This document shows positions 1 through 32,963 of a stretch of DNA of 32,963 nucleotides, piece by piece. A program made the translations under genes and the position numbers. The stretch covers positions 29,250 to 62,212 of the forward strand of contig JADGBU010000003.1 in the NCBI GenBank assembly GCA_015231295.1. Reading direction: 5' to 3'. Source of the stretch: Magnetococcales bacterium (lineage in GTDB: Bacteria > Pseudomonadota > Magnetococcia > Magnetococcales > Magnetaquicoccaceae). Each line of letters begins with the position of its first letter. Position 1 is the first letter of the stretch. Below the pieces are notes generated by a model that searched no databases, was not told the DNA's origin, and saw only the letters and a list, made by a program, of their open reading frames with translations.

Positions 1-1
1 T

Positions 2-520
2 CGCGACGCCTGGTTCATCGGCATTTCGCCTTCGCTGGTGGCCGGGGTGTGGGTCGGCATGGATGATTTCTCCATTCTCGGCGAAACCGGAGGGACGGCG
101 GCGTTGCCGATCTGGATGGATTTCATGCAAGAGGCGTTGCAGGGGCAACCCGCGACCGATTTTGCCGTGCCGCCCGGCATCTCCCTGGAGGAGATCGATG
201 CCGAATCCGGCACGCTGCCCGGACCGCATACGGCCAATCGGGTGTTTGAAGCCTTCAAGCCTGGTCAGATGCCCGCCGCCATCGCGAGCGCGCCTGAAGA
301 GAGCGGTTCCGGAGGGGGCGGCGATGTTCAGGGTGAGGAGGCGGGGATCTCTTCGGAACCGGCGACTGCGCCCGCGACCGGGGGTGTGGCTCCCGCGCCG
401 GCGCGGGGCGGTGGGGTGAGTTCCAATCCTGGCAAGGGCACGTCGTCGGGAGGGGGTGTCGGGGCGATTCCGGGAATCGGGCGTCACGGGCAGGGGGAGA
501 TGGACGGCGGCTTGTATTAA
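2..520 (+). CDS. Penicillin-binding protein 1A-type C-terminus (partial, 5' end outside window)
   Basis: Frame open from base 2: RDAWFIGISPSLVAGVWVGMDD..., typical of the class A PBP transpeptidase C-terminus, followed by GGTAALPIWMDFMQEAL; Gly/Pro/Ala-rich tail; stop at 520. Confidence 0.85.
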   Translation, partial: RDAWFIGISPSLVAGVWVGMDDFSILGETGGTAALPIWMDFMQEALQGQPATDFAVPPGISLEEIDAESGTLPGPHTANRVFEAFKPGQMPAAIASAPEESGSGGGGDVQGEEAGISSEPATAPATGGVAPAPARGGGVSSNPGKGTSSGGGVGAIPGIGRHGQGEMDGGLY

Positions 521-600: not shown

Positions 601-677
601 AAAGCGACCATCCCGATTTCGCGCTCCGACCGGTCAACGGGAAGGCGCGGCAGGGATGTTCAGCAAAGGCCGGGAGA

Positions 678-1838
678 ATGGAAATGGCGACGAGTCAAAA
701 AAGCAGCAGCAGGATTCGGCTGAAAGAATTAACGATAGAGAACTTCAAAGCGATCGATCATATCACTTTAAAATTTGATCCGCCCAGGATGCGGGCTGAC
801 CCTGACATTTATGTCATGGGAAGCCGTAATGGTATTGGAAAGACATCCATTTTGGAATCCTGTGCTCTCATTTTTCTTGCGGCGTATAGTGGCGAGGAAA
901 AGTTCAATATTGGAAAAATTCCTGAATTGTCAGTCAATTTGTCTGAATTGTTTGTGCGATCAGGAGCAGAGAAATCAAACTTGATTGGAGTGTTTTCTTC
1001 TGGTGCTATTAATTTGACAATTCATGTTCAATTATCGAAAAAAGGTGTTTTAAGTGTTACAGGAGATCGGGAGAGAATTAAGAAAATATTTGAGTCTGCA
1101 GGGAATCGTCCTGCTGAGGATTTGACGGAACGTTTTTTCATGTTGTTGGCAGGATTCAATATGGAGCCTGTCACCATGCCTCCATGTTTATACTTTCATA
1201 GTTACCGTAAAGTACAAGAGGGTAATCCTGAGCTTGGTATGATGGTTGAGTCAGAGATGATGATGCATCGACGTATGGTCAGGACTTCCTATGGGAGAAT
1301 GCGCATTTCTCCTGGTGACAATGTGTTTGTCAGTACATTCAAGTTGCATATTCTGCGCGCCATGATGGGAAGAGCCAATCTTTTTGAGAAATTGGACAGT
1401 AAAAATGCTGATGAAACATTTGAAAAGTTGAATGGTTTGATTTTGAGATACGCAGGCGGGACAATCGAAAAATTGCGTCCATCTTTGGATAATACTGTTG
1501 ATTTCCGGATAACGCCCAAAAACGGGGGCGATTCGTTTGCTTTTGATGGACTCAGTTCTGGCCAGAAAGAGATCATCTCCACGCTCTTTTTGGTTTGGCA
1601 TTATACGAGAAATCAGCCTTGCATTGTTTTGATCGATGAGCCGGAACTGCATTTGAATGCCGAGTGGCATCGTGATTTTGTTCAACAGATATTCAAACTT
1701 GCGCCAGAGAATCAATATATCTTTGCGACTCATAGTGAGGATATTTTTAAGTCGGTCAATGATGATCGTCGTCTTTTTCTGGGGATGGAGGAAACATCTT
1801 CCCAATCGGTTCATCAGAATGGAGAGGACAGGCCATGA
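678..1838 (+). CDS. AAA/ABC-type ATPase (AriA-like or OLD-like), candidate defence ATPase
   Basis: ELTIENFKAID N-terminus, Walker A GSRNGIGKTS, signature-like LSSGQKE, Walker B CIVLIDEPELHLN, H-loop FATHSEDIF. Alternative ATG at 684; the 456 start of the ORF track runs through the repeat and is unlikely. Confidence 0.85.
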   Translation: MEMATSQKSSSRIRLKELTIENFKAIDHITLKFDPPRMRADPDIYVMGSRNGIGKTSILESCALIFLAAYSGEEKFNIGKIPELSVNLSELFVRSGAEKSNLIGVFSSGAINLTIHVQLSKKGVLSVTGDRERIKKIFESAGNRPAEDLTERFFMLLAGFNMEPVTMPPCLYFHSYRKVQEGNPELGMMVESEMMMHRRMVRTSYGRMRISPGDNVFVSTFKLHILRAMMGRANLFEKLDSKNADETFEKLNGLILRYAGGTIEKLRPSLDNTVDFRITPKNGGDSFAFDGLSSGQKEIISTLFLVWHYTRNQPCIVLIDEPELHLNAEWHRDFVQQIFKLAPENQYIFATHSEDIFKSVNDDRRLFLGMEETSSQSVHQNGEDRP

Positions 1839-2740
1839 TATCGGTTCGTGTTGGAGGTTCTCCCGATTTGGCTCGCCAAGGCCGGGCACGCCATAAATTA
1901 TTTGTCGAAGGTCATGGCGATGGGCTTGACGTAGAAGCTTTAAAGATTTTCCTTCCCATGATTGACATCGAACCCATGGGTCCAGCTCATCACCTGAAAA
2001 GTGTTGCCACCGCCCTCCATCCGCACCATGCCGACTACTATTTTTTGGTTGATCGTGATCATCATGATGACCAAACGGTTGAAAACTCCTGGAAAAATTT
2101 CCCGGACACATCAAGATCGAACCTGTTGATTTGGCGAAAGAGGGAATTTGAGAATTATTTTCTTGATCCGGATTATCTCCAGAAGTCGCAATGGCTAAAA
2201 TCGACCTATAAGGGAAAAACGGGGAAAGCAAAACTGGAGCAGAAGATTCTCAATTTTGCAAATCAGCGTATTTTTATGGATGTCGTCAATCGGGTGATTC
2301 TGAAGGTCCGGGAAGATCAAAAGAACACCTGGATTGATCTGTTCAGTAATCCGGATAAGTGCAAAGATAAAGAAATGGCCAAGGAAGCCTTGCTTGGCTT
2401 GGAGACGTTTCAAAAAAGAAGTAAGGATGTTTCTGACTCGGTAAATGGTTGCAATCTGGAAAAATTATTTGAGGAGTTTTTTGAAGAATTGTCTGGGGGA
2501 TGCGTCCCGTTATCTTTTGGTCGAGGGCGGTGGATTGACCATATGAGCGGGAAAGAACTACTGACGCAGACCATCAACAATTGCTTTCAGGTGAAGGATT
2601 CTGAAGGACGTGAGGTTGAAGAAGGCAAAATTGTGATTGTGGAAGTCGTCAAGGACTTGATGAGATTGGGCATTGAATCTCAGCCAAGAGATTTTCAGGA
2701 GTTGTATCGCCTGATTGATCAGCGCACGCTTGGGGCGTGA
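1835..2740 (+). CDS. TOPRIM/DUF4435-like protein (AriB-like candidate effector)
   Basis: KLFVEGHGD (acidic motif), YYFLVDRDHHDD (DxD-type motif), then LLIWRKREFENYFLDPDYL as in DUF4435-type proteins. ATGA overlap with the upstream ATPase. Confidence 0.7.
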   Translation: MISVRVGGSPDLARQGRARHKLFVEGHGDGLDVEALKIFLPMIDIEPMGPAHHLKSVATALHPHHADYYFLVDRDHHDDQTVENSWKNFPDTSRSNLLIWRKREFENYFLDPDYLQKSQWLKSTYKGKTGKAKLEQKILNFANQRIFMDVVNRVILKVREDQKNTWIDLFSNPDKCKDKEMAKEALLGLETFQKRSKDVSDSVNGCNLEKLFEEFFEELSGGCVPLSFGRGRWIDHMSGKELLTQTINNCFQVKDSEGREVEEGKIVIVEVVKDLMRLGIESQPRDFQELYRLIDQRTLGA

Positions 2741-2779: not shown

Positions 2780-3646
2780 TCAGGCGAGCATCGGGGCCGG
2801 AAGCGGCAGAAGAGCCTGGCGCATTTTGGTCAGAGCGCGTTGCTCCAACTGACGGACCCGTTCCCGGGAGACGCCGATCTTGCGTCCGATCTCTTCGAGG
2901 GTGAGCGGCTGGTCATCGAGGATGCGCCAGGAGATGATGGCCCGTTCCCGTTCGTTGAGCACCTGCAACGCCTGAATCGCGGCACGACGATTGATGGTCG
3001 CCGCTTCGGCGGCCAGGAGAGAAACCTCCTGATTGCTTTGTTTGTCCGGGATGAGATTTTGCAGCTCTTCGCCATCTTCGAGGGCGCAGCGGTTGAGGGA
3101 GTCATCCCGGCTGGAAAGACGCACATCCATTTCCAGGATTTCCTGGGTCTTGGCACCGAGTTTCTGTCCCAACAGGGAGGCTTCATCCCGATCGAGGCGT
3201 TCGATGGAGCTTTTGTTGCGTCGCAGGCTGAAAAACAGTTTGCGTTGCATGGCGGTCGTGCCGATTTTCACCAGACTCCAGGAACGCAGGATGAACTCCT
3301 GAATCGAGGCCCGAATCCACCAGATGGCATAGGTGGAAAGACGAAATCCCTTGTAAGGATTGAATTTTTTCACAGCCTGCATCAATCCGAGAGAGCCTTC
3401 CTGCACCAGATCCATCAAGCGCATGCCATAGTCGGTATACTCTCTGGCGATCTTCACCACATAACGCAGATAAGAAGAAACCAGACGGTGGGCGGCGTGG
3501 AGATCCCCATGTTCGTGATAGCGCACCGCCAGTTGAAACTCCTCCTCCGGGGTGAGCAGGGGGAACTGGTTGATTTCGCCCAGATAGCGAACCAGATCCC
3601 CTTGATCGGAAACCGGAATCAGTGCGTTTCCTGTCGTGGGTTTCAT
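2780..3646 (-). CDS. rpoH: RNA polymerase sigma-32 factor RpoH
   Basis: Sigma-70 regions 2 and 4; RpoH-box-like AMQRKLFFSLRRNK; region 2 DLVQEGSLGLMQAVKKFNPYKGFRLSTYAIWWIRASIQEFIL; C-terminal HTH EEIGRKIGVSRERVRQLEQRAL. Confidence 0.9.
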   Translation of the reverse strand: MKPTTGNALIPVSDQGDLVRYLGEINQFPLLTPEEEFQLAVRYHEHGDLHAAHRLVSSYLRYVVKIAREYTDYGMRLMDLVQEGSLGLMQAVKKFNPYKGFRLSTYAIWWIRASIQEFILRSWSLVKIGTTAMQRKLFFSLRRNKSSIERLDRDEASLLGQKLGAKTQEILEMDVRLSSRDDSLNRCALEDGEELQNLIPDKQSNQEVSLLAAEAATINRRAAIQALQVLNERERAIISWRILDDQPLTLEEIGRKIGVSRERVRQLEQRALTKMRQALLPLPAPMLA

Positions 3647-4500: not shown

Positions 4501-4662
4501 AATCGGTACGGCCCCTGTCGGAAAGAGCGGAGCGCGTCGCCGTGAGGGTGTGTGAGGGTTTTTTTAATTTACTCCCACGGCGATGCTGCTACAATGGCAT
4601 TCGGGTTTGTCGGGAATCGTGAAGCTTGTGGGAGAAACCTACTCGTGACAGGGGATCGGATC

Positions 4663-5184
4663 ATGGATGGCGCAGGCAAGAAGTTGCAGGAAAAGGATGT
4701 GTTCGAGAACACGGTTGCGATTGTCCGGGAACTGTATGGCAAGGAGAGCTTCTGCGCCCGCATCAAGTCGGAGCAGATCGTCCTCGATATCGATGTGGAG
4801 CAGGGATGCACCAAAAGCGTGATGCTGGAGTATGGAAAATTCATCGTCTCCAGGGATGCCAAGGATGTGAATGGTCAATATGTCAAGCACGACATCCTGA
4901 AGGATCCGCAATCGTTTGAACAGTTCGTGTTCGTCGAAAAATTCTACGAGTACATGGATTGCAAAATCAATGATTTGACCGAGTACGAAATTTCCCTCCG
5001 GGAGTACGAGAGTCTGCTGAAATTCTCCCAGATCACCGCCAATCTCAACTACAAGATGTTTCCCGCCTTGATGGAATTCTTCAAGAAGGATTGCATGAAC
5101 ACCTTCCGTTCGGTGTTTAACAAGGAGCAGGCCAAGATTCTCAACATGCGACTCGGCGAACTGCTGATGGAATATCAGCCCTGA
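4663..5184 (+). CDS. Hypothetical protein, acidic and apparently soluble; no family recognised
   Basis: Open frame with coding-like composition (MDGAGKKLQEKDVFENTVAIVRELYGKESFCARIKSEQIVLDIDVEQG...). Start uncertain (ATG 4594 or 4663). Confidence 0.6.
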   Translation: MDGAGKKLQEKDVFENTVAIVRELYGKESFCARIKSEQIVLDIDVEQGCTKSVMLEYGKFIVSRDAKDVNGQYVKHDILKDPQSFEQFVFVEKFYEYMDCKINDLTEYEISLREYESLLKFSQITANLNYKMFPALMEFFKKDCMNTFRSVFNKEQAKILNMRLGELLMEYQP

Positions 5185-6011: not shown

Positions 6012-7939
6012 CCCAGAAACCGCCGCACGCGGGGAATGAACTCCGTGGGCGTGAACGGCTTGTTGATGAAGTCGTTGGCCCCGAGACGAAAAGCGGTCTC
6101 ACGGGTTTCGATGGTGTCGTCTCCGGTGACGAGAATCACCGGGATCAGCCGGGTCTTGGGATCCTGACGCACCTTGCTCAGAAAGGTGAAGCCATCCATG
6201 CCCGGCATCTGCACATCGCAGATGATCAGATGACAGGCCTGCGTCTGCAACACCTCCAGAGCCTGAATGCCGTTGGTGGATTCCTGGGTTCGCACGCCAT
6301 CGTTGTGAAGGAATGCGAGCAGAAGTTGACGGAACTCCGCGTCGTCATCCACGATCAGGGCCTGGGGGACCACCTCCGGCAGATGGGCGTAGAAGATGCT
6401 GCCGATGCCCTCTTTGGACTCCACGGTCAGATCTCCGTGATGGGCCCGCAACAGATCCCGACTGAAGGGGAGTCCATATCCTGTGCCATGCTCTCCGGCG
6501 GTGCCCACGGTCGATGTTTTCTCCTCCAGGTTGAAGAGTTTGGCCAAGCGTTTTTGACGGATGCCCACTCCCGTATCCAGCACGGCGAGGGTGGAGGGTT
6601 TGCCCGGCGGGCGCAGCAGCGTGATGCGATCCCCCCGATTGCAAAACTTGATGGCGTTGGTGAGCAGATTGTGCAACACCTCGCCGAACAGACTGGGATC
6701 CGCGTGCAGTCGAAAGGATTCGGGCAGATTGTTGACCACCTCGATTCCTTTTTGCTCCGCCAGGGGACGGATCGAGTCCAACGCCTTTTCGCCGGTGAAC
6801 CGGGCGTTGAAAAAACGGGGCTCCGGAACGATCTTGCCGGTTTTCAGGCGGCTGATGTCGAGAATTTCATCGATCAGGGCGAGCATTTTGGCACTGCTTT
6901 CGGTGATCCAATTCAGGTATCCCTTTTGTTTTTTGCTCAGCGGATTCTTGGGGTCGTGGTCGAGGAGTTCCAGAAAGCCCAGAATCGAGGTGAAGGGGCC
7001 GCGCAGATCATGGGCCACCAGGGAGACGAATTGATCTTTCAGGTGGGTGGCCCGTTGGGCGGCATCCCGCGCCCGGAGCAGGGCGGCCTTGTCCTTGCGA
7101 TGACGGGTGATATCCCGCAGGATCACCACCACATGCCAGGCGTTGCGGATCTGGACGGCGGATGAGGAGGCTTCCACCGGAAAGGTCTTGCCGTTTTTGC
7201 GCTTGACCATGAACTCGACCACCCGACCGATCATGGTGCCTTTGCCGGTGCGGCTGAAGGTCTTGAAACTGTTTTTCAGGCGCGTGGCGAACTCGGAGGG
7301 GGGAAGCAGGTCGAGGACCGGTCGTCCGAGGATCTCTTCCGGTTCCATGCCGAAGACGCGGGTGGCGGCGGGATTCCAGAAGGTGACACGCATCTGGGCG
7401 TCGAGGATCAGAATGGGATCCAGGGCCGCCGAGGCGATGGCATCGAGCCGTTCACGGGCTTCGTTCAGGACCAGGGCATCGGTTTCGACCCGTTTTTCCA
7501 GTTGCGCCTTGGCTTTTTGGAGTTCGGCGAGAGCCGCTTCCAGATTGCAGGCGGTGCGACGCTTTTCCAGCACATGATGGATCGCCCGATTGAGGCTTTC
7601 CACGCCCAATTCGTTTTTGCGCAGATAGTCATCCGCCCCCACCCGGACCGCTTCCACCAGGGCTTCATCCCCTTCGGTGCCGGTGAAGAGAATGCAACCG
7701 GCCCGACTGCCCATCGATTTGAGACGGCGAATCAGATCGATGCCGGATTCGTGATCGAGTCGATAATCCACGAAAGCGATGTGGGGATCGAGGCGTTCCA
7801 CCTGTCGGAAGGCTTCTTCCCCGGTGGCGCAGGCGACGGGCACGACGGTCCAGCGGGTGAGCTTCTTGAGCAGACCCGACAACAAAGCCCGTTCCATCGG
7901 GTTGTCATCCACGATCAGGGTGTGTATTTCGTCGTCCAT
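6008..7939 (-). CDS. Soluble hybrid histidine kinase: REC-PAS-HisKA-HATPase-REC
   Basis: N-terminal REC (TLIVDDNPMERALL ... HIAFVDYRLD), PAS (RLDAIASAALDPILILDAQMRVTFWNPAA), HisKA (SLVAHDLRGPFTSILGFLE), HATPase (LTNAIKFCNRGD, LDTGVGI), C-terminal REC (ALIVDDDAEFRQLLL ... LIICDVQMPGMDG). ATGA overlap with rsmA. Confidence 0.9.
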   Translation of the reverse strand: MDDEIHTLIVDDNPMERALLSGLLKKLTRWTVVPVACATGEEAFRQVERLDPHIAFVDYRLDHESGIDLIRRLKSMGSRAGCILFTGTEGDEALVEAVRVGADDYLRKNELGVESLNRAIHHVLEKRRTACNLEAALAELQKAKAQLEKRVETDALVLNEARERLDAIASAALDPILILDAQMRVTFWNPAATRVFGMEPEEILGRPVLDLLPPSEFATRLKNSFKTFSRTGKGTMIGRVVEFMVKRKNGKTFPVEASSSAVQIRNAWHVVVILRDITRHRKDKAALLRARDAAQRATHLKDQFVSLVAHDLRGPFTSILGFLELLDHDPKNPLSKKQKGYLNWITESSAKMLALIDEILDISRLKTGKIVPEPRFFNARFTGEKALDSIRPLAEQKGIEVVNNLPESFRLHADPSLFGEVLHNLLTNAIKFCNRGDRITLLRPPGKPSTLAVLDTGVGIRQKRLAKLFNLEEKTSTVGTAGEHGTGYGLPFSRDLLRAHHGDLTVESKEGIGSIFYAHLPEVVPQALIVDDDAEFRQLLLAFLHNDGVRTQESTNGIQALEVLQTQACHLIICDVQMPGMDGFTFLSKVRQDPKTRLIPVILVTGDDTIETRETAFRLGANDFINKPFTPTEFIPRVRRFLG

Positions 7940-14369: not shown

Positions 14370-14420
14370 GGGGTCCAGGGGCCATTGGCCCCTGGTGGGG
14401 TCCAGGGGCGAAGCCCATGG
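14370..14420 (+). repeat. Dispersed hairpin repeat, copy B (two hairpins)
   Basis: Palindrome ccaggggccattggcccctgg (14375-14395), then ccaggggcgaagcccatgg. Confidence 0.9.
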
Positions 14421-17747: not shown

Positions 17748-17895
17748 GGTGACGGAACGGAGGTTGGAGAGGTGGATCGCTGCTCTCAGGCATGCAATCC
17801 TGGGGCCGTAAAGCGGGCATCTTTGAAATGGCCGGGAAATTGCTTGCTGCCTGCACGACGCATATCCTTTGAAAATCTTCAGCCTGGAAGGTCCG

Positions 17896-20403
17896 ATGAT
17901 GCCCGACACGACGCACGAGTTGTCTTTGGGTCCGTTTCTCATGAACCGGTTCGGGGAGCGGTATCTGCCCTCGGTGAACCAGGAGGCCTTTTCCAGGGTC
18001 GGATCGGACAATGTGTTTCAGCAGCAATACGGGGATTTTTTCGCCCGCGAGGATTCGCTTTATCTGATCGCCGGTTGCGATTCCGGATTGCTGGTGCAGT
18101 GGATTTTGCGCAAGAAGCGACCCGAGGGCTCCCGGTTCATTTTTCTCGATCACCCCGCGATTCTCCAGCGGTTGCGGGAGGAGGGGATTCTCCCGGAGGA
18201 GCTTCCCGCCGGCGTGCTGGCGACGACCGTCGATCGCTGGATCGTCGAGGCGGAACCGTTCTCTCTCAAGGAATATTTTTATCTCGATCAGGTCTTTGTG
18301 GCCAAATCGCTGGCCGTGGTCGATGGGATCCACGACGGTTATGTCGGCCTCTTCGGAGAGCTGGAACGGACTCTGGGACAGTATCGGCTGCAGGTGAGCC
18401 AGGAGATCGGCCATCGGGTCTTCATGACCAAGGGGCTGGAAAATCTTGCCGAAAACCGTACCCCCGCCAGTCGTCTGCAGGGAAGTTTTGCCGGACAGAC
18501 CGCCGTGTTGCTGGCGGGTGGTCCCTCTCTGCCGGAGTCTCTGCCCTGGATCCGTCAACATCGGGCGCATCTCACCATTCTGGCGGTCGCCCGGGTGGCG
18601 GATCATCTGCGCCGCGAAGGGGTGGTGCCCGATCTGCTGGTGGCCATCGATCCCCATGGCGTGATCTTTCATCAGAGCAAAGGGATGCTGGGCTTCTGGC
18701 GGGAGAGTCTGCTGGTCAACATGTATCATCTCAATCCCGCCCTGCTCGCCCAGTGGAAGGGGCGCAGCGTTTACATGGGTCCACTCTTTCCCTGGGATAG
18801 CCCCCTGAATCCCGTCAATGTGTTCTATCCCGGCATCACCGTGGGCCATCAGGCGTTGGGGATTGCGGTGGATATGGGATTTTCGCGGGTGGTGCTGGCG
18901 GGGTTCGATCTCTGTTTCACCCGCGAGGGTTTTACCCATGTGGCGGGCAGCGTGGAACAAGAGATCGGACCCTTCATCGCCCGTGGCGATCTGATGGTGG
19001 AAACCAATGGCGGCTGGATGGCGGAGACCCGTCACGACTTTCTGAACGCCATTCCCAGTCTGGCCGCTCTGGCCCAGTATGCCGCAGAGCGTCACTGTCA
19101 GGTGATCAATCCCAGTCCCGCCGCCGCCCGGATCGACGGGGTGGCGCATCTGCCCTGGGAGAGTCTCATCCCGGAACCGATGGCGCGACCCGCTCAGGAT
19201 CTGCTGCGGGAGCGGCTCCCCGCCGAAACCGGTGCCGATCGGCTCACCTTCTATCAGACCATCGATCAGGAGGTGGTGGCGGTCCGCAAGGTGGCGGCCA
19301 AGGTCAAGAGTCTGGCCCTGGAGGGGATCGAATGCAACGATGGCCTCTTCGGACGCCGGGGCAAAACGCCTGATTTCAAGTTCAAGAAGCGGATGGATGC
19401 CATCGAACGGACGCTCGACGAGGAGTATCGGGAGGTGAGCCGCCTGGTCAAGAAATGGGGACTGGGGGCCATGCTCAAGCTGAGCCGTCCGGACAAGGAG
19501 CGGGAGTGGAGCGATGAGGAGATCGAACGGGCCGGACGACTCTATTACGAAATCTATCGGGACAACGCCACCGCCCTGATCAAGCTGCTGGACGGGGTGC
19601 GTCAACGGATTCGCGCCAGACAGGAGGAGGAGAAACATCGTCCCGACTTCAAGACGCTGCTGAAACAGTGGCGGGAAGATGGAGAGCCGGGACGGGCGTT
19701 GGTCTTTCTGGAGCGGCGCGGCTGGAGTCTCGACGATCTGCCGGAATCGGTGCGTCCCGGTTTCCGGGAGTCTTTGGAGAAGTTTGAAGCCTTGCTGACC
19801 GAAACCGATCACGATTACAAAAAATACATTCTCTCGGTGCAGAGTTCCCCGCAGACGGTACGGGTCAAGGCCCAGGCGATGTTCCGCAACCGGGAACGGG
19901 ATCGTCTGGCCCATTTCGCCTCCGGTCTGGAGAAAAGCACGCTGGTCGAACGTCCCGAACATCTGCATCTGATCCGGGGCTATCTGGCGGAACTCGACGG
20001 CGCGCACGAGCAGGCGGCGCGTCACTATCGTCAAGTCACCCATCCGGCCCTGCTGGCCGAGGCTCTGCAACGACTCTTCACGCTGGCCCTCCAGGGCGGA
20101 GATCTGCTGACCGCCCAGGCGGTGTCGCAGCGGCTTTCCGAACTCTCCGTGGCCCACATTCCGTTTCACGCCGAACTGTTGCGCCTCAACGGCCATGGCG
20201 CCACCGCCGCCGCCATCTACGAGGAGTATCTTAAACTGGTCCGCAAGGATTTCGTCTCCATGGTCAAGCTCGGACGGCTCTATCTGGAACTGGGTCAGCC
20301 GGAGCGCGCCCGGGAAACCTTCTCGCGCATTCTCGAAGAGGATCCGGACAATCAGGCGGTTCGCACCTTTCTCGCCGATCTGGATCGGGAGTCGGGCCGG
20401 TGA
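17896..20403 (+). CDS. DUF115 (MAF_flag10/6-hydroxymethylpterin pyrophosphokinase MptE-like) protein with C-terminal TPR-like region
   Basis: AVLLAGGPSLPESLPWI, VARVADHLRREGVVPDLLVAIDPHG, ITVGHQALGIAVDMGFSRVVLAGFDLCFT; C-terminus AAAIYEEYLKLVRKDFVSMVKLGRLYLELGQPERARETFSRILEEDPDN is TPR-like. Confidence 0.85.
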   Translation: MMPDTTHELSLGPFLMNRFGERYLPSVNQEAFSRVGSDNVFQQQYGDFFAREDSLYLIAGCDSGLLVQWILRKKRPEGSRFIFLDHPAILQRLREEGILPEELPAGVLATTVDRWIVEAEPFSLKEYFYLDQVFVAKSLAVVDGIHDGYVGLFGELERTLGQYRLQVSQEIGHRVFMTKGLENLAENRTPASRLQGSFAGQTAVLLAGGPSLPESLPWIRQHRAHLTILAVARVADHLRREGVVPDLLVAIDPHGVIFHQSKGMLGFWRESLLVNMYHLNPALLAQWKGRSVYMGPLFPWDSPLNPVNVFYPGITVGHQALGIAVDMGFSRVVLAGFDLCFTREGFTHVAGSVEQEIGPFIARGDLMVETNGGWMAETRHDFLNAIPSLAALAQYAAERHCQVINPSPAAARIDGVAHLPWESLIPEPMARPAQDLLRERLPAETGADRLTFYQTIDQEVVAVRKVAAKVKSLALEGIECNDGLFGRRGKTPDFKFKKRMDAIERTLDEEYREVSRLVKKWGLGAMLKLSRPDKEREWSDEEIERAGRLYYEIYRDNATALIKLLDGVRQRIRARQEEEKHRPDFKTLLKQWREDGEPGRALVFLERRGWSLDDLPESVRPGFRESLEKFEALLTETDHDYKKYILSVQSSPQTVRVKAQAMFRNRERDRLAHFASGLEKSTLVERPEHLHLIRGYLAELDGAHEQAARHYRQVTHPALLAEALQRLFTLALQGGDLLTAQAVSQRLSELSVAHIPFHAELLRLNGHGATAAAIYEEYLKLVRKDFVSMVKLGRLYLELGQPERARETFSRILEEDPDNQAVRTFLADLDRESGR

Positions 20404-21596
20404 CGCCCGCCATCCTGAAACGTGTGCTGCGTCGGGATTGTTCTTTGTTTCAGGCCGATGTGGAGAGTCGTCGTCCGGAACTGCTCGACGCCCTGAAAGG
20501 CTCCCGTCTGCTGGTGATCGGTGCGGCGGGCTCCATTGGCGGGGCGTTCAGCCGGGAGGTGGTGCAGTGGCCCGTGGCCGCGTTGCGACTGGTCGATCCG
20601 AGCGAAAACAATCTGGTCGCGTTGGTGCGGGAGCTGCGCGCCTCCTCCCTGACCCCCCCGGAGGATTTCGCCACCAGTGCCATCGCTCTGGGAACCCCGG
20701 AGTTCGATCATTTTCTGGAGGCGCAGCCGCCGTTCGATTATGTGGTCAACTTTGCCGCCCTCAAGCATGTGCGGGCGGAACGGGATCCGTTCACCCTGAT
20801 GCGGATGATTCAGGTCAATGTGCTGGCTCTGGATGCGCTGCTGCAACGCCTCTCCCGTGGTTCGGGGGGGCGTTTTTTCTCCGTCTCGTCGGACAAGGCG
20901 GTCAACCCCGCCAATCTGATGGGGGCCAGCAAAGCCCTGATGGAACAGACCATGTGGCACTGGTCCGACCGGTTGACCGCCGTCACCTCCCGTTTCGCCA
21001 ATGTGGCTTTTTCCGACGGCAGTCTGCTCCACGGATTTTTGCGCCGCATGGAGAAGCGGCAACCGTTGGCGGCTCCCCTGGATGTGAAACGCTATTTCAT
21101 CTCGCATGAAGAGGCGGGTCAGTTGTGCCTGTTGGCCAGTGTGCTCGGGGGCAATCGGGAGGTGTTCATTCCCCGTCTGGAGGCGGATCAGGATCTGTCC
21201 ACCTTCGCGGAGATCGCGGTGGCGGTGCTTCAGGAGTCGGGATACACCCCCCGGCTGTTTTCCAGCGATGACGAGGCGCGCCGCTTTGCCGCTTCCATGG
21301 GACCGGAGTGCCGGGAGTGGCCCTGCTGTTTCACGGTGAGCGATACCACCGGCGAAAAGGATGAAGAGGAGTTTCTGGCCCATGGCGAAGCGGCGGATTT
21401 CACCACCTATCGTCATATCGGGGTGATTCGGGAGCCGGCGCGGGATCCGGAAGGGTTGCAACGGTTTCTGACCACCATGCGCCGGTTGCGAAGCGAACCG
21501 CTCTGGGAGATGTCCGCCCTGGTGCAGGCCATGGAACAGGCGGTTCCCGCCTTGTCCCACCGGGTGGCGGGACGGGATCTGGATGGCAAAATGTGA
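20400..21596 (+). CDS. Nucleotide-sugar 4,6-dehydratase-like polysaccharide biosynthesis protein (LegB/FlaA1-like)
   Basis: LVIGAAGSIGGAFSREV (Rossmann), FAALKHVRAERDP, FFSVSSDKAVNPANLMGASKALME (Met in place of the SDR Tyr in the YxxxK region). GTGA overlap with the preceding gene. Confidence 0.85.
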   Translation: MTPAILKRVLRRDCSLFQADVESRRPELLDALKGSRLLVIGAAGSIGGAFSREVVQWPVAALRLVDPSENNLVALVRELRASSLTPPEDFATSAIALGTPEFDHFLEAQPPFDYVVNFAALKHVRAERDPFTLMRMIQVNVLALDALLQRLSRGSGGRFFSVSSDKAVNPANLMGASKALMEQTMWHWSDRLTAVTSRFANVAFSDGSLLHGFLRRMEKRQPLAAPLDVKRYFISHEEAGQLCLLASVLGGNREVFIPRLEADQDLSTFAEIAVAVLQESGYTPRLFSSDDEARRFAASMGPECREWPCCFTVSDTTGEKDEEEFLAHGEAADFTTYRHIGVIREPARDPEGLQRFLTTMRRLRSEPLWEMSALVQAMEQAVPALSHRVAGRDLDGKM

Positions 21597-21616
21597 TCGA
21601 TGACGATCGAGGAGCG

Positions 21617-22780
21617 ATGATGGCGCGGATTCCACTGGCAGTGCCGGATTTGACGGGTAATGAGGCCCGTTATCTCCAGGAGTGCATCACCTCCACTTAT
21701 GTTTCATCGGTGGGACCGTTTGTGGATCGGTTTGAATCCCTGGTGGCCGAGGCGAGCGGAGCCCGTGGCGCGGTGGCGGTCTCCTCGGGCACCTGCGGAT
21801 TGCATGCGGCTCTGGTGGCTCTGGGGGTGGGGAGCGGCGATCTGGTGATCGTGCCCTCCTTGACCTTCATCGCCAGTGCCAATGCGGTGGCCCATTGCGG
21901 AGCCGCCCCCTGGCTGATGGATGTGGACCCTCTCACCTGGAATCTCGATCCGAAGGTGCTGGAGGAGCATCTCTCCCGGGAGACCCGGCTGCATCAGGAT
22001 GGGACGGTGATCCATCGCTCCTCGGGACGGCGGGTGGCGGCGGTGATGGCCGTTCACACGTTGGGCCTTCCCGCCGACATGGAGCCGATTCTCGCTTCGG
22101 CGCGGGCGCGCGGTCTGCCGGTGATCGCCGATGCCGCCGCCGCGTTGGGCTCCTGGCATCGGGGCCGACCGGTGGGCGCGTTGGAGGCGGATCTGTCGGT
22201 TTTCTCCTTCAACGGCAACAAGACCGTCACCTGTGGCGGGGGCGGCGCGGTGGTGGGAGAGGATGCGGGATTGTTGAATCTGGTGCGTCATCTCACCACC
22301 ACGGCCCGTCAGGGGAGCCATTATGATCACGATCGGGTGGGTTTCAACTATCGCATGACCAACCTTCAGGCGGCGGTGGGCTGTGCCCAGATGGAACGAC
22401 TGGAGCCGTTTGTGGCGGCCAAACGTCGCATCCGTCGCCGTTACGATCAGGCCTTCGCCGATCTGGCGGGGGTGGTCTCTCCTTTTCCCGATCCCGCCGA
22501 CAGTGTGGGAGCCTGCTGGTTTTCCGGATTCGTGATGGAACGGGGCGATCCCGATGGCGTGGAGCGGTTGCGGAACGGCTTGCAACAGATGGGGATCGAT
22601 GCCCGTCCGTTCTGGAAACCGATTCATTTGCAGCCGCCCTATCGGGACGCGCCCTGTTCTGCCCAACCGGTGAGCGAGGCGCTGTGGTGGCGGGTGGTGA
22701 CGCTCCCTTGCGGGACGGGTTTGCCTCCCGAGGATCAGGAGCGGGTCATTCTTGCCGCCCGGAAGCTGCTGACCGCTTGA
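21617..22780 (+). CDS. DegT/DnrJ/EryC1 aminotransferase (LegC-like)
   Basis: VSSVGPFVDRFE, AVAVSSGTCGLHAALVALGVGSGDLVIVPSLTFIASANAVAHCGAAPWLMDVD, SFNGNKTVTCGGGGAVVGED (PLP Lys region). GAGGAG RBS upstream of ATG 21617/21620. Confidence 0.9.
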   Translation: MMARIPLAVPDLTGNEARYLQECITSTYVSSVGPFVDRFESLVAEASGARGAVAVSSGTCGLHAALVALGVGSGDLVIVPSLTFIASANAVAHCGAAPWLMDVDPLTWNLDPKVLEEHLSRETRLHQDGTVIHRSSGRRVAAVMAVHTLGLPADMEPILASARARGLPVIADAAAALGSWHRGRPVGALEADLSVFSFNGNKTVTCGGGGAVVGEDAGLLNLVRHLTTTARQGSHYDHDRVGFNYRMTNLQAAVGCAQMERLEPFVAAKRRIRRRYDQAFADLAGVVSPFPDPADSVGACWFSGFVMERGDPDGVERLRNGLQQMGIDARPFWKPIHLQPPYRDAPCSAQPVSEALWWRVVTLPCGTGLPPEDQERVILAARKLLTA

Positions 22781-22838
22781 AAAAGGGCGGAATGGGGATC
22801 CATTCAACGTCATGAAACCAATTTATCGACCTTAAGAA

Positions 22839-23498
22839 ATGGCTCAGGAATTGCAATTCAGTGCATTGATCCTGCTTGGCGGGGGCGGCCATGCGCGGGT
22901 GCTGCGGGATGTGCTGGAGCAGCTTGGCTGGTGCTCCAGCGTGCTGGGCGTGCTGGCTCCCCGGATGAGCGCGGAAGAACAGGCCGCCCTGGCGTTGCCC
23001 TGGTTGGGCGGAGACGAGCGGTTGGCGGATTTTTCTCCGGAGTCGGTCGGTTTGGTGCTCGGGGTGGGGTCGGTGGGGTCGGGTGGCGGACGGATGGCCT
23101 TGTATCGATCCGCCCGGGAGCGGGGATTCGGGTTTGCGACGTTGCGGCATCCGACCGCCTGGATCGCCTCGAAGGTGCAACTGGGTATGGGGGTGCAGGT
23201 GATGGCCCGCGCGGTGATCCAGACCGGCGCGGTGGTGGGAGAGAATGGTCTGATCAATACCGGGGCGGTGGTGGAACACGATTGCCGATTGGCCGATCAT
23301 GTTCATGTGGCCTCCGGGGCGGTGTTGAGCGGAGGGGTTCGGGTCGGGCCGGGGGTGCATGTGGGAGCCGGAGCGGTGGTGCGACAAGGGATCGAGATCG
23401 GTGCGGGAGCGGTGGTCGGGGCCGGGGCGGTCGTGGTGCGAAACGTGCGCCAGGGAGTCGTGGTGATGGGGTGTCCAGCCGGGGAGAAGAGACGATGA
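22839..23498 (+). CDS. NeuD/PglD-family sugar O/N-acyltransferase (left-handed beta-helix)
   Basis: LILLGGGGHARVLRDVLEQLG N-terminus; hexapeptide repeats GAVVGENGLINTGAVVEHDCRLADHVHVASGAVLSGGVRVGPGVHVGAGAVV. Confidence 0.9.
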   Translation: MAQELQFSALILLGGGGHARVLRDVLEQLGWCSSVLGVLAPRMSAEEQAALALPWLGGDERLADFSPESVGLVLGVGSVGSGGGRMALYRSARERGFGFATLRHPTAWIASKVQLGMGVQVMARAVIQTGAVVGENGLINTGAVVEHDCRLADHVHVASGAVLSGGVRVGPGVHVGAGAVVRQGIEIGAGAVVGAGAVVVRNVRQGVVVMGCPAGEKRR

Positions 23499-24556
23499 GA
23501 GAAGAGGATCGTTGGCAGACCATTTTGATTCGGCCTGAGTTGTCGATTCTGGAAGCGTTGCGGGTGATCGACAAGGGAGCCTTGCGTTTGGCACTGGTGA
23601 CGGATGATGCTGGTCATCTTCAGGGGGTCGTGACCGATGGGGATGTACGCCGCGCTTTGTTGAAACGCGTGGATATGAAGGAGCCTGTGATGACCATCAT
23701 GAATGCCGCACCCACCTTCGCCCGGGCTTCGGAGACCCGGGATCGTCTGCTTTCGATGATGCATGCCAAGCGGATCGAGCATCTGCCGATCGTGGACGAT
23801 GGCGGTTGCGTGATGGGGCTGGAGACGATGCACAATCTGTCCGTGCCCGCGCCCCGGGATAACTGGGTGGTGCTGATGGCCGGCGGATTGGGCTCCCGGC
23901 TCTCCCCCCTGACCGACGTGGTTCCCAAACCGTTGCTCAAGGTAGGCTCCAAGCCGATTCTGGAAGTGATTCTGGAAAGTTTCCTCTCACACGGATTTCA
24001 CCGCTTTTTCCTGTCGGTCAACTACCGCAAGGAGATGATCAAGGAGTATTTCGGCGATGGGTCCGCCTGGGGGGTGGAGATCGTCTATCTGGAAGAGAAT
24101 GGCCGTTTGGGCACCGCCGGTTCGTTGTCGCTGTTCCCCGAGCGTCCCACCGAGCCCTTTTTCGTCATGAACGGGGATCTGCTCACCCGGATCAACTTTC
24201 AGCATGTGTTGAATTTTCATCTGGAGCATCAATCCCGTGCCACGTTGTGCGTCCGCAAGGTGGAGCAGACGGTCCCGTATGGTGTGGTGCGGCTTGACGC
24301 CCATCGTCTCGTGACCATCGAAGAGAAGCCGGTGCAGGAGTATTTCGTCAACGCCGGGATCTATCTGTTGGATCCGGAGGTGTTGCCTTTGATCCCCAAG
24401 GGTCAATATTTCGACATGCCGACTCTGTTTCAGAGCATCATCAAACAGGGGGAGACCACGGCGGCCTTTCCGTTCCTGGACTACTGGATGGATATCGGGC
24501 GGATGGGGGATTTTCGTCAGGCCTGTCGGGATTATCCCGAGGTGTTCGCGGCCTGA
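23495..24556 (+). CDS. CBS-domain nucleotidyltransferase (PtmE-like sugar-1-P guanylyltransferase type)
   Basis: N-terminal CBS pair (LALVTDDAGHLQGVVTDGDVRRALL) then VVLMAGGLGSRLSPLTDVVPKPLLKVGSKPILE. ATGA overlap with the acyltransferase; the 22931 start of the ORF track is spurious. Confidence 0.88.
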   Translation: MREEDRWQTILIRPELSILEALRVIDKGALRLALVTDDAGHLQGVVTDGDVRRALLKRVDMKEPVMTIMNAAPTFARASETRDRLLSMMHAKRIEHLPIVDDGGCVMGLETMHNLSVPAPRDNWVVLMAGGLGSRLSPLTDVVPKPLLKVGSKPILEVILESFLSHGFHRFFLSVNYRKEMIKEYFGDGSAWGVEIVYLEENGRLGTAGSLSLFPERPTEPFFVMNGDLLTRINFQHVLNFHLEHQSRATLCVRKVEQTVPYGVVRLDAHRLVTIEEKPVQEYFVNAGIYLLDPEVLPLIPKGQYFDMPTLFQSIIKQGETTAAFPFLDYWMDIGRMGDFRQACRDYPEVFAA

Positions 24557-24622: not shown

Positions 24623-24702
24623 CATCACGGGTCCAGGGGGATTATCCCCCTGGTGGGATCCAAGGGCAAAGCCCTTGGTGGGGTTCAGGGGCGAAGCCCC
24701 TG
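24623..24702 (+). repeat. Dispersed hairpin repeat, copy D (three hairpins)
   Basis: ccagggggattatccccctgg (24633-24653), ccaagggcaaagcccttgg, caggggcgaagcccctg. Confidence 0.9.
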
Positions 24703-24707
24703 GAGAC

Positions 24708-28245: not shown

Positions 28246-28320
28246 TGGGTCCAGGGAGATGATCTCCCTGGTGGGGTCCAGGGGCGACGCCCCTGGTCGG
28301 GTTTGGGGCGACGCCCCAAA
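28246..28320 (+). repeat. Dispersed hairpin repeat, copy E (three hairpins)
   Basis: ccagggagatgatctccctgg (28251-28271), ccaggggcgacgcccctgg, tttggggcgacgccccaaa. Confidence 0.9.
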
Positions 28321-29482: not shown

Positions 29483-32400
29483 TCATTCACCCACCATCAT
29501 GAACGCCGACCAGATGTAGGGATGTTTCCAGGCGTCGGACTCCAGCAGATCCAGTTGCGACTCCCGCAAGGCGCGATGGGCGTTCATGCCTTCTCCCAGG
29601 CGGGCGTAAAGACTGGTCATGAGGGCCTGGGTTCCCGCGTCGCTCACCTCCCACAACGAGGAGATCACCGCCTTGACGCCCGCCTCCTGAAAGGCGCGCC
29701 GCAACCCGTAAACCCCTTCGCCTTCGTGCAGCTCTCCCAGTCCGGTTTCGCAGGCCGACAACACCGCCAGTCGGGTGCCGGTCAGATCCAATCCCAACAC
29801 CTCCATGGCGGTGAGCACGCCATCGTTTTCGGTATCCATCTCGCCGAGAAACCGGGCGTTGGCGTTGATGCCCGCAAAGGCCAGTCCCGCCCGCAACAGG
29901 GGGTTGTCACCCGGCGGGGGCAGGCGCGATTCGCCGCTGCGGGCCAGCTTCAGCAGACGCTTCTTGAGGGAGTCGTCCGGCTTGAGGAAAAATCCGTGCG
30001 TGGCGATGTGGAGAATTTCCGGCGGCTTTTCGAGCGATTGCAACGACGACTCCTGGGCTTCGTTCCGGATCAGCACGGTATTGTTTTTTTTCTTGTCCGT
30101 GGCCTGTCCGGAGATCAGGCGTCCCTCTTTTTCCGCGCCGGGCAGGGGATCGAAATGCAGACCGCGCAGCCCGGATGAAAAGGACCGCAAGCCCTCCTTG
30201 AGATCGGTGGAACGGCGTCCCTGCTGTTCATCCATCTTGAGGGCCTGCGCCTTGGCTCCGCCCACCTTGTCGGAGTCGTAATCCGGACCGGCCACGATCA
30301 GATAGTTTCCTTTGGCCTCCGGGAGGTTGGCGGGCACCAGATCGCGACTGGTGGAGAGAATATGCAGATCGGTATTGCGGGCCAGATAATCGGACTCCGG
30401 GTCCACCAGGGCGGCGAAGGGCAGAATGTTCAGTTGACCATCCGGCACCACATAGACCTGTTCCCGGTTGCCGATCTGTTTTTGGACCGGAGCCCAGATC
30501 AGGTCATAGGCGGCCCGCCCCACCTTTTTGAGAGCCTCCTCATCGGCCTCTTCATCCTGGATGATGGTCCGGTATTCGGTGATGATCTTGTTGATCGCCT
30601 CCGGATCGGGATAGATCACCCGATCGAAGATCGGCTTGTCTTTCTCCTTGCGCAAGATGGCGGCGATCAGACCGGTGCGTTCCTCGTCCCGGAAGGCGAA
30701 AAATTCCACCAGCACCGCCTGTTCCGGCAGATGTTTCACCAGATTGTCGAGGCTCACCGTCCGGCTGCTGCTTTGGAATTTTTTGCTGGCCTGTCCCAGT
30801 TGCTGTTGCAACCGTTCCACTTCGGTTTCCAGGGCGTGGATCACCGTGAGATGGCTCTGGGCGGTCTCCGGCGTGGGGCCGGAAAGGGTCAAGGAGGCCA
30901 GTTTTTTGCGGGTTTCGGTCAGGCGGTCGCCGATCTCCTGAAGCTTGGGATCCTTCCCCAGTCGGGTGATCTGACGGATTTCCGAGGTGATCTTGAGCAG
31001 CAGGCCTTTGCGACGCAGGCCCACCTCCAGGGTTTCGCGTCCCGCCGTGGCGGAATCGACTCTGGCCAGCCGGGTCAGATAGGTGTTGAGCTCCGGCGCG
31101 TGCAGACGGATGTAGCCTTCCCGCGCGTTGTCACCCGTGGACCAGAGCATCCGGTCGAGAAAGTCGGAACGGCGTGTGAACAGCTCCTTGCGCAGTTTGA
31201 GTCCTTCGGCGGGATTGGTTTTTTCCACGATCGAGGCCAGGGTGTCGAGCACCTCGAAGGTATAGGGATGGAGGGTGCTCAGGCTCTCTTCGGCCTGTTT
31301 GCGGGTTTTCTTGGCCAGCTCCTCGGCCTCCTTGAGGCGTCCCATATCCCGCAGCAGCAGGCTCAGATCGTTCATGGAGCGGATGACATCCGGATGACGC
31401 TCCCCGAGCACCTTCCGACGCGACTCCAGGGCGCGGGTGAAATATTGTTCCGCCGCCGAATGCTGTCCGAGATGATGGGTGACGCGAGCCAGATTGTTCA
31501 GGGCTTTCAGGGTGCGGGGGTGCTGTTCTCCCAGGGAGGTGCTCCAGCTTTCCAGAGCCCGTTTGAACAGAGGCGCGGCTTTGGCGTCATCTCCTTTCAG
31601 CAGGTGCAGATAGGCCAGATTGTTGATCACCGCCACCGTATCCATATGATCCTCGCCCAGACTCTGACGATAGGAGTCGATGGCGTTCTGATAGAGCGGT
31701 TCCGCCTTGTCGAAGTTGCCCTGGCTTTCGTGCAGCAGGGCCAGATTGTTCATGGTGGTCAGGGTGAGCGGCTGTTCGGCACCGAGATTTTTCTGCGCCA
31801 GATCGAGTGCTTCGCGCAAGACCGGCTCCGCGTCGTCGTATTTTCCCGCCTGTTCCAGCAGTTGACCCAGATTGTTCAGGGTGGTGATGGTGGTGGGATG
31901 GCTGGCACCCAAGGTTTTTCTGAGTGCTTCCAGGGTCTGTTTGAGACCGGTTTCCGCTTCGGACAGGCGTCCCTGTTTTTCGAGGATGGTGGTCAGTTCC
32001 ACGTTCATCGCCAGGGTGGCCGGATGATCGGCCCCTTGCGCGGTGGCCAGTTGTTGCTGGAGTTTTCGTGTCAGGGTTTCGGCGGTTTTGAAGTCGCTGC
32101 GATCGACCAGCAGATGAATCCGGGCGGTATTCGCCTCGATGGCCAGCGGGGAGAGGTCATCTGTCGGCAGTTTGGCAAGCATCGGCTTGAGCAGTGCCTC
32201 GGCCCGCTTGAAATCTCCCATGAGTCGGTTGGCCTCGACCGCGCCGATGCGCAGGGTTCCCGAGGCGGGATCTTCGGCGGGCAGCACCGCATCGACAATG
32301 GCCAGAGCCTGCTCGTAGGCGGCGCGGGCCACCGGATAGGCTTCGCGAGCCATCTGGAGGGCGGCGAACTGCTCCAGGAAGCGGGCGGTTTCCGGGTGGT

Positions 32401-32963
32401 GATAGCCATGCGTGGAGGCCGACAGCGTACCGCTTTCCCGCAACACCGCTTCGGCTTCGGCGAACTGTCCGAGGCTTTTCAGGGTGCGGACCAGGGCCAG
32501 ATCGTTTTCCAGAGCCAGGGGGTGTTGGGCACCGATTTTGGCTTTCCACGCCTGGCGCGCCCCCTGATAGAGATCGCGGGCCGCTGCGGGATTCATGCGG
32601 GTTTCCAGGAGTTCGCCCAGGGCCTTGTCGGTGGTGAGGGTTTCCGGATGATGGGCACCCAGGGCGTTGCGCGCGTTCGAGGCCGCCTGCTTGAGCAGAG
32701 GTTCGGCTTCGGCGGTCTTGCCGGCCATGGTCAGATAGGTGCCCAGTTCCCGTTCGCTCATGAAGGTGGCGGAGTGTTTGGCACCCAGATTCTCCCGCGC
32801 CAGATCCGTCGCCTGTTTGCCCAGACGGATGGCTTGTTCCAGATCGCCTTTTTCGGCGGCGGCCATGGCCTCTTCGCGATTTTTCGACCACAGGGCGGCG
32901 AGGCTCGACTTGTTGGCCGGAATCTCTCCCGCCTGATTGAGGCTTTCGTCCACCCATTCGGGC
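29483..32963 (-). CDS. TPR-CHAT protein (caspase-like peptidase domain), 5' end outside window
   Basis: Many TPRs (NNLGQLLEQAGKYDDAEPVLREALDLAQKNLGAEQPLTLTTMNNLALLHESQGNFDKAEPLYQNAI) and C-terminal CHAT (ILHIATHGFF ... LAVLSACETGLGELHEGEGVYGLRRAFQEAGVKAVISSLWEVSD). The frame stays open to the window edge (PEWVDESLN...). Confidence 0.92.
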   Translation of the reverse strand, partial: PEWVDESLNQAGEIPANKSSLAALWSKNREEAMAAAEKGDLEQAIRLGKQATDLARENLGAKHSATFMSERELGTYLTMAGKTAEAEPLLKQAASNARNALGAHHPETLTTDKALGELLETRMNPAAARDLYQGARQAWKAKIGAQHPLALENDLALVRTLKSLGQFAEAEAVLRESGTLSASTHGYHHPETARFLEQFAALQMAREAYPVARAAYEQALAIVDAVLPAEDPASGTLRIGAVEANRLMGDFKRAEALLKPMLAKLPTDDLSPLAIEANTARIHLLVDRSDFKTAETLTRKLQQQLATAQGADHPATLAMNVELTTILEKQGRLSEAETGLKQTLEALRKTLGASHPTTITTLNNLGQLLEQAGKYDDAEPVLREALDLAQKNLGAEQPLTLTTMNNLALLHESQGNFDKAEPLYQNAIDSYRQSLGEDHMDTVAVINNLAYLHLLKGDDAKAAPLFKRALESWSTSLGEQHPRTLKALNNLARVTHHLGQHSAAEQYFTRALESRRKVLGERHPDVIRSMNDLSLLLRDMGRLKEAEELAKKTRKQAEESLSTLHPYTFEVLDTLASIVEKTNPAEGLKLRKELFTRRSDFLDRMLWSTGDNAREGYIRLHAPELNTYLTRLARVDSATAGRETLEVGLRRKGLLLKITSEIRQITRLGKDPKLQEIGDRLTETRKKLASLTLSGPTPETAQSHLTVIHALETEVERLQQQLGQASKKFQSSSRTVSLDNLVKHLPEQAVLVEFFAFRDEERTGLIAAILRKEKDKPIFDRVIYPDPEAINKIITEYRTIIQDEEADEEALKKVGRAAYDLIWAPVQKQIGNREQVYVVPDGQLNILPFAALVDPESDYLARNTDLHILSTSRDLVPANLPEAKGNYLIVAGPDYDSDKVGGAKAQALKMDEQQGRRSTDLKEGLRSFSSGLRGLHFDPLPGAEKEGRLISGQATDKKKNNTVLIRNEAQESSLQSLEKPPEILHIATHGFFLKPDDSLKKRLLKLARSGESRLPPPGDNPLLRAGLAFAGINANARFLGEMDTENDGVLTAMEVLGLDLTGTRLAVLSACETGLGELHEGEGVYGLRRAFQEAGVKAVISSLWEVSDAGTQALMTSLYARLGEGMNAHRALRESQLDLLESDAWKHPYIWSAFMMVGE

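What the first reader, a model, noticed from the sequence alone, without database searches (positions are those of the whole stretch)
678..2740. Candidate PARIS-like (AriA/AriB) or OLD-like AAA ATPase plus TOPRIM/DUF4435 defence pair in an AT-rich island
Seen: two translationally coupled genes (ATGA overlap). The first has Walker A GSRNGIGKTS, LSSGQKE, and LIDEPELHLN/FATHSED. The second has FVEGHGD, FLVDRDHHDD and a FENYFL segment. The pair is AT-richer than its surroundings (e.g. 22/60 G+C in 961-1020 vs 41/60 in 19201-19260) and sits between a PBP1A gene and rpoH, just after repeat copy A. Established: PARIS pairs an ABC-type ATPase (AriA) with a DUF4435 TOPRIM nuclease (AriB); OLD/Gabija systems combine related ATPase and TOPRIM modules. 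Inference: a horizontally acquired anti-phage toxin-effector module, possibly a divergent subtype.
Basis: partly seen in the sequence, partly recalled or inferred. Interest (0 to 1): 0.72.

Follow-up and report, generated by a model that had tools for sequence, protein, structure and literature searches.

The report
Divergent PARIS-type phage-defence gene pair
Two overlapping genes inserted between a cell-wall enzyme gene and a sigma-factor gene of a Magnetococcales bacterium look like a distant version of the PARIS anti-phage system, an ATPase sensor with a toxic nuclease, in a form that the standard Pfam-based search rule would miss.

Summary
Two intact, ATGA-overlapping genes (P1, start best at 684, to 1838; P2, 1835-2740) encode an ABC-type ATPase and a small nuclease-like protein. 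They lie between PBP1A and rpoH and are 17 points lower in G+C than the rest of the window. P2 falls below the Pfam DUF4435 cut-off, but all ten members of its family match the PADLOC AriAB fusion model, a profile comparison with AriAB C-termini gives 95.7% (E 9.5e-9), and the TOPRIM acidic residues are invariant. P1+P2 joined in silico score 115 bits against AriAB, the best of all PADLOC families. The pair is accessory: the site is empty in same-genus relatives, both genes occur in the same 11 of 48 genomes of the order, always together, with different neighbours, and their divergence does not follow the host's. In two genomes the ATPase survives beside a broken nuclease. I judge it a divergent branch of two-gene PARIS (class 4 OLD). 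Its ATPase is at least as close to PtuA (Septu/retron) as to AriA. Defence activity, trigger and target (tRNA in E. coli PARIS) are inferred, not shown. The structure model of P2 was too poor to use.

The parts
684..1838 (+). P1, AriA-like ABC-type (AAA_15/AAA_21) ATPase, 384 aa (alternative start 678, 386 aa); predicted sensor/inhibitor subunit
   Evidence: Pfam AAA_15 61.6 bits (cut-off 32.1), AAA_21 50.0 (cut-off 27); PADLOC PtuA 3e-24, AriAB 7.1e-21, AriA 2.6e-19; family alignment A2
672..676 (+). GGGAG, probable ribosome-binding site of P1 (7 nt before ATG 684)
   Evidence: sequence; inference
819..848 (+). Walker A GSRNGIGKTS
   Evidence: translation; GSxNGxGKTS invariant in A2
1551..1571 (+). 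ABC signature LSSGQKE
   Evidence: invariant in A2
1629..1658 (+). Walker B / D-loop LIDEPELHLN
   Evidence: IDEPELHLN invariant in A2
1725..1742 (+). H-loop region ATHSED
   Evidence: ATHS invariant in A2
1821..1827 (+). GGAGAGG, probable ribosome-binding site of P2
   Evidence: sequence; inference
1835..2740 (+). P2, AriB-like TOPRIM/DUF4435 protein, 301 aa; predicted toxic nuclease effector
   Evidence: PADLOC AriAB 4.1e-10; all 10 family members hit AriAB and 2 hit AriB; DUF4435 in 2 of 10 members; hhalign with AriAB C-termini 95.7%, E 9.5e-9
1901..1912 (+). TOPRIM motif 1 FVEG (Glu25 invariant; likely counterpart of AriB E26)
   Evidence: A1; same column as invariant E321 of A5
2051..2059 (+). 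TOPRIM motif 2 DRD (Asp73, Asp75 invariant)
   Evidence: A1; same columns as invariant D374 and D376 of A5
2138..2161 (+). KREFENYF, the ExEN motif shared with DUF4435/AriB (Glu104, Glu106, Asn107 invariant)
   Evidence: A1
1..520 (+). C-terminal end of PBP1A, left neighbour of the insertion (context)
2780..3646 (-). rpoH (sigma-32 type), right neighbour of the insertion (context)
   Evidence: 89% identical in G030 and G029

Best explanation
The pair is a divergent two-gene PARIS-type (class 4 OLD) anti-phage system. Shown by sequence: an ABC-type ATPase with all its motifs and an adjacent, translationally coupled TOPRIM/DUF4435 protein with all its acidic catalytic residues, inserted as a stand-alone two-gene module. 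Inferred from E. coli PARIS (PMC12409363, PMC11455837): the ATPase assembles into an oligomer that holds the nuclease inactive; a phage protein (in E. coli an anti-restriction protein such as Ocr) binds the ATPase; the nuclease is released, dimerises and cuts a cellular RNA (tRNA-Lys in E. coli), so translation and growth stop before the phage is made. The trigger and the RNA target in this lineage are unknown.
For: P1 passes both ATPase thresholds of the published PARIS rule (rule in PMC9122126). P1 and P2 match the same AriAB fusion model in order (profile up to 388, then 430-651), and joined in silico they score 115.1 bits, E 9.6e-34, best of all PADLOC families; joined length 687 aa against a model of 694. 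All 10 P2 relatives match AriAB (best 7.6e-13), 2 match AriB and 2 match DUF4435. P2 family against AriAB fusions: hhalign 95.7%, E 9.5e-9, with E25, D73, D75 and E106 in the columns of the invariant acidic residues; the unrelated control A1 against A2 gave 0.3%. P1 and P2 are present in exactly the same 11 of 48 genomes, always adjacent and in the same order. The PBP1A-rpoH site is empty in close relatives. The pair is lower in G+C than its flanks at every locus examined. Relatives of the order also carry other AAA+DUF4435 pairs. Two genomes keep the ATPase but have lost the nuclease core, the expected decay of a toxic effector.
Against: P2 itself has no DUF4435 match and no family member reaches the 27-bit cut-off (best 24.9), so the published two-gene rule is not met to the letter. 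The ATPase resembles PtuA at least as well as AriA. The AlphaFold model of P2 is poor (pLDDT 45) and finds no fold. The pair is not in a visible defence island or prophage. No functional data.
Confidence: 0.82

Rival explanations
1. A separate ATPase-TOPRIM defence kind: a PtuA-like (Septu/retron I-A type) ATPase that has acquired a DUF4435 nuclease in place of the HNH protein PtuB, sensing and acting differently from PARIS.
For: Best PADLOC match of P1 alone is PtuA (3e-24, against 7e-21 for AriAB); the A2 profile scores PtuA structures 42-56 bits but AriA 28-31 bits; the top Foldseek matches shown are nearly all PtuA; P1 is 384 aa against 464 for E. coli AriA.
Against: Both proteins together match AriAB best. 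PADLOC lists PtuA among the top matches of a DUF4435-paired ATPase from G027 and as the best match of that from G013, so PtuA similarity does not separate the groups. The nearest DUF4435-linked ATPase is a long AriAB-like fusion (L090). No HNH partner was found.
Confidence: 0.12
2. An OLD- or Gabija-like DNA nuclease system in which P2 nicks DNA rather than RNA.
For: TOPRIM domains of OLD and GajA cut DNA (PMC12409363, PMC10568477); P1 weakly matches OLD 6p74 and GajA.
Against: OLD and GajA are single chains and Gabija needs a UvrD-like helicase; here the domains are separate and no helicase lies next to the pair at the window locus. P2 matches only AriB/AriAB/DUF4435 models.
Confidence: 0.1
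3. A chromosomal function unrelated to phages (housekeeping or cell cycle, like archaeal Cran1, PMC12796447), or a plain toxin-antitoxin pair that maintains itself.
For: OLD relatives with non-defence roles exist; the loss of P2 with P1 kept is also what a toxin-antitoxin pair would show.
Against: Absent from 37 of 48 genomes of the order and from nearly all same-genus relatives, different neighbours each time, identity uncoupled from the host (Spearman -0.02 against cysS, n = 9), foreign composition. In E. coli PARIS deletion of ariA was not toxic, against a simple toxin-antitoxin pair (PMC9122126).
Confidence: 0.08

Closest known systems
PARIS, E. coli B185 AriA/AriB (class 4 OLD)
   Same: ABC-type AAA_15/21 ATPase next to a TOPRIM/DUF4435 protein on separate adjacent genes; same catalytic acidic residues; stand-alone two-gene cassette
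   Different: ATPase shorter (384 against 464 aa) and only about 31 bits from AriA in profile search; P2 has no detectable sequence match to any PDB chain and lies below the DUF4435 cut-off; trigger and target unknown
AriAB single-gene fusions (PADLOC PDLC02981; e.g. L090 in G063, 692 aa)
   Same: Order and length of the two halves match almost end to end; best overall score of the joined pair (115 bits)
   Different: Here the halves are two overlapping genes
Septu / retron I-A PtuA
   Same: ATPase of the same ABC group, slightly better score than AriA
   Different: Partner is a TOPRIM/DUF4435 protein, not the HNH protein PtuB; no reverse transcriptase seen beside it
OLD / Gabija GajA
   Same: ABC ATPase combined with a TOPRIM nuclease
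   Different: Single chain there; Gabija has a GajB helicase; weak similarity only

Membership tests
PARIS (AriA/AriB) | ATPase matching AAA_15 (at least 32 bits) or AAA_21 (at least 27 bits) | tested here: met
   61.6 and 50.0 bits; thresholds from PMC9122126
PARIS (AriA/AriB) | Adjacent protein matching DUF4435 (PF14491) at 27 bits or more (the published detection threshold) | tested here: not met
   No match for P2; 2 of 10 family members match, best 24.9 bits. This is the rule's threshold, not homology, which the next row tests
PARIS (AriA/AriB) | Homology of the second protein to AriB/DUF4435 TOPRIM, catalytic residues included | tested here: met
   AriAB model hit by all 10 members; hhalign 95.7%, E 9.5e-9, E, DxD and E columns shared
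PARIS (AriA/AriB) | ATPase and TOPRIM on adjacent genes or fused, inherited together | tested here: met
   Same 11 of 48 genomes, always adjacent
PARIS (AriA/AriB) | Predicted TOPRIM fold of the second protein | tested here: inconclusive
   Model pLDDT 45.4; strand/helix order fits TOPRIM but no significant fold match
PARIS (AriA/AriB) | AriA hexamer sequestering AriB; trigger-induced release; tRNA cleavage; phage protection | not testable with these tools
   Needs biochemistry and phage assays
Septu (PtuA/PtuB) | PtuA-type ATPase | tested here: inconclusive
   Best single PADLOC match of P1 is PtuA, but NCBIfam PtuA 61.5 bits against a cut-off of 500
Septu (PtuA/PtuB) | HNH nuclease PtuB as partner | tested here: not met
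   P2 matches no HNH family
Gabija / class 1-2 OLD | ATPase and TOPRIM in one chain; GajB helicase for Gabija | tested here: not met
   Separate genes; neighbours are PBP1A and rpoH, no helicase
Retron I-A / I-B | Reverse transcriptase and msr-msd RNA beside the ATPase | tested here: inconclusive
   Direct neighbours are PBP1A and, 39 bp away, rpoH, so no reverse transcriptase is adjacent; no RNA family search was run

The most novel reading that the evidence does not exclude
A distinct ATPase-TOPRIM defence lineage centred on Magnetococcales, in which a PtuA-like ATPase controls an AriB-like nuclease, with a trigger and an RNA or DNA target different from E. coli PARIS.
Probability: 0.2. Interest if true: 0.5.

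Novelty: new member of a known kind. Interest (0 to 1): 0.36.

Why it matters
It extends PARIS to a branch that the published Pfam rule (AAA plus DUF4435 at 27 bits) does not see, so counts of PARIS are probably low for this group. Natural copies in which only the nuclease is broken, and the empty sites in sister genomes, give ready comparisons. Magnetococcales (order name from GTDB record titles of the nearest relatives) are little studied for phage defence: one full-text search found no dedicated paper.

Tried and rejected
Mobility by the dispersed repeat next to the pair: rejected, since a similar repeat also sits in a site without the pair (L032) and the repeat occurs at four or five other places in the window. 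Flanking direct or inverted repeats of a transposon: only short chance-like matches. A tRNA attachment site: no tRNA in the window. Phage or plasmid carriage: no match of P2 in the phage and plasmid collections, and none in IMG/VR with the family alignment. PDB sequence search with P2 and with its profile: nothing. Fold of P2: model too poor; Foldseek list not meaningful. Single-sequence hhalign against individual AriB relatives was too weak, so an AriAB alignment was built instead. Promoter and terminator scan: not clearly above chance. The host's own N6 methylase genes (several matches) agree with an anti-restriction guard but prove nothing.

Full report
What is there. The window is positions 29250-62212 of a 62 kb contig of a fragmented 3.8 Mb genome; the nearest named relatives are Magnetococcales MAGs. 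P1 (684-1838, alternative start 678) and P2 (1835-2740) are intact, overlap by ATGA, and each has a plausible ribosome-binding site. P1 carries every ABC ATPase motif; P2 carries FVEG, DRD and ExEN.

P1. Pfam gives AAA_15 61.6 and AAA_21 50.0 bits, both over the cut-offs. PADLOC lists PtuA (3e-24), AriAB (7.1e-21) and AriA (2.6e-19). The family profile finds PtuA chains at up to 56 bits and AriA chains 8ux9/8v45 at 31 bits. The model (pLDDT 63.9) resembles PtuA most in Foldseek, but at TM about 0.43-0.53 of the query length. The ATPase is therefore of the AriA/PtuA/OLD group without a clear nearest branch.

P2. No Pfam family recognises it. The ten-member family A1 does better: all members hit AriAB (best 7.6e-13), two hit AriB (6.9e-9) and two hit DUF4435 (best 2e-5, 24.9 bits, under the cut-off). 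A profile of eleven AriAB fusions taken from other genomes aligns with A1 at 95.7%, E 9.5e-9, over the TOPRIM core, and the invariant Glu, Asp-x-Asp and Glu fall in the same columns; a control against the ATPase family gave nothing. Predicted secondary structure alternates strand and helix with the acidic residues at strand ends, as in TOPRIM, but the model is poor and is not used as evidence.

Together. P1 and P2 joined in silico score 115.1 bits against AriAB, ahead of every other PADLOC family. By the published rule (AAA_15 at 32 or AAA_21 at 27, plus DUF4435 at 27; PMC9122126) the ATPase passes and P2 fails, so the pair would be missed by that rule although homology is clear. The OLD literature calls the arrangement of ATPase and TOPRIM on separate adjacent genes class 4, which is PARIS (PMC10568477, PMC12796447).

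Accessory and mobile. PBP1A, rpoH and plsC stay together in same-genus relatives. Between PBP1A and rpoH lie roughly 100 bp in G030, some tens of bp or less in G027 and G032, and no pair; in the window the gap is 2.26 kb. Both genes occur in the same 11 of 48 genomes of the order (12 loci), each time adjacent and in the same order, with other neighbours; no genome outside the order in a 398-genome sample of the phylum has a close copy. Identity of P1 does not follow the host: G029 has cysS 85% but P1 52%, G042 cysS 39% but P1 58%; Spearman -0.02, n = 9. At nine loci the pair is 7-18 points lower in G+C than its surroundings. The route of transfer is not known: no phage, plasmid, transposon end or tRNA was found.

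Decay. In G007 the N-terminal catalytic part of P2 is missing and in G042 P2 breaks off within about 60 residues, both beside an intact ATPase. In G001 the ATPase frame has a stop codon in the P-loop region. Any one of these could be an assembly error. Loss of the effector with the ATPase kept fits a costly toxin.

Mechanism. By analogy with E. coli PARIS (PMC12409363, PMC11455837) P1 should hold P2 inactive and release it on binding a phage protein; P2 should cut RNA, in E. coli tRNA-Lys. Residues needed for both activities are present. Everything about trigger, partner binding and target is inference. The host has several N6 methylase genes, possibly restriction systems, which would give an anti-restriction guard something to guard.

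Verdict. A divergent two-gene PARIS-type system: new member of a known kind, moderately interesting because it is invisible to the standard rule and because its ATPase is PtuA-like.

Noticed in passing
529-578, 14371-14420, 24629-24703, 28247-28296: Dispersed intergenic repeat (GGGTCCAGGGG...TGGGGTCCAGGGGCGAAGCCC) in four or five places; a similar element sits in the PBP1A-rpoH gap of relative G028 (L032). Function unknown.
   Followed up: partly
17869-24556: MptE-like/TPR protein followed by what read like a FlaA1-type dehydratase, DegT aminotransferase, NeuD-like acetyltransferase and CBS nucleotidyltransferase: perhaps a surface or flagellar glycosylation cluster (only MptE and TPR were checked).
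   Followed up: partly
29483-32953 (-): 1156-aa TPR protein with a C-terminal CHAT (caspase-like) domain (Pfam E 8.8e-76), possibly a signalling or defence protease.
   Followed up: partly
4552-5184 (+): 210-aa ORF between plsC and ksgA, lower in G+C (49%) than most neighbours, without a Pfam match.
   Followed up: partly
L071 2566-4736, L072 2675-4765, L073 2527-4596: Other AAA ATPase plus DUF4435 pairs in Magnetococcales genomes G027, G013 and G006; that of L073 follows genes that read like an SMC-like ATPase and a DNA translocase.
   Followed up: partly
L027, between rpoH and PBP1A (about 2358-2811): The PBP1A-rpoH gap of G029 holds a tandem repeat of about 22 bp units, which suggests that this gap tolerates extra DNA.
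   Followed up: no
L017 about 6924-7001 (just left of the window): Run of Ns inside PBP1A: the window begins at a scaffold gap, so the broken PBP1A frame is an assembly artefact.
   Followed up: yes
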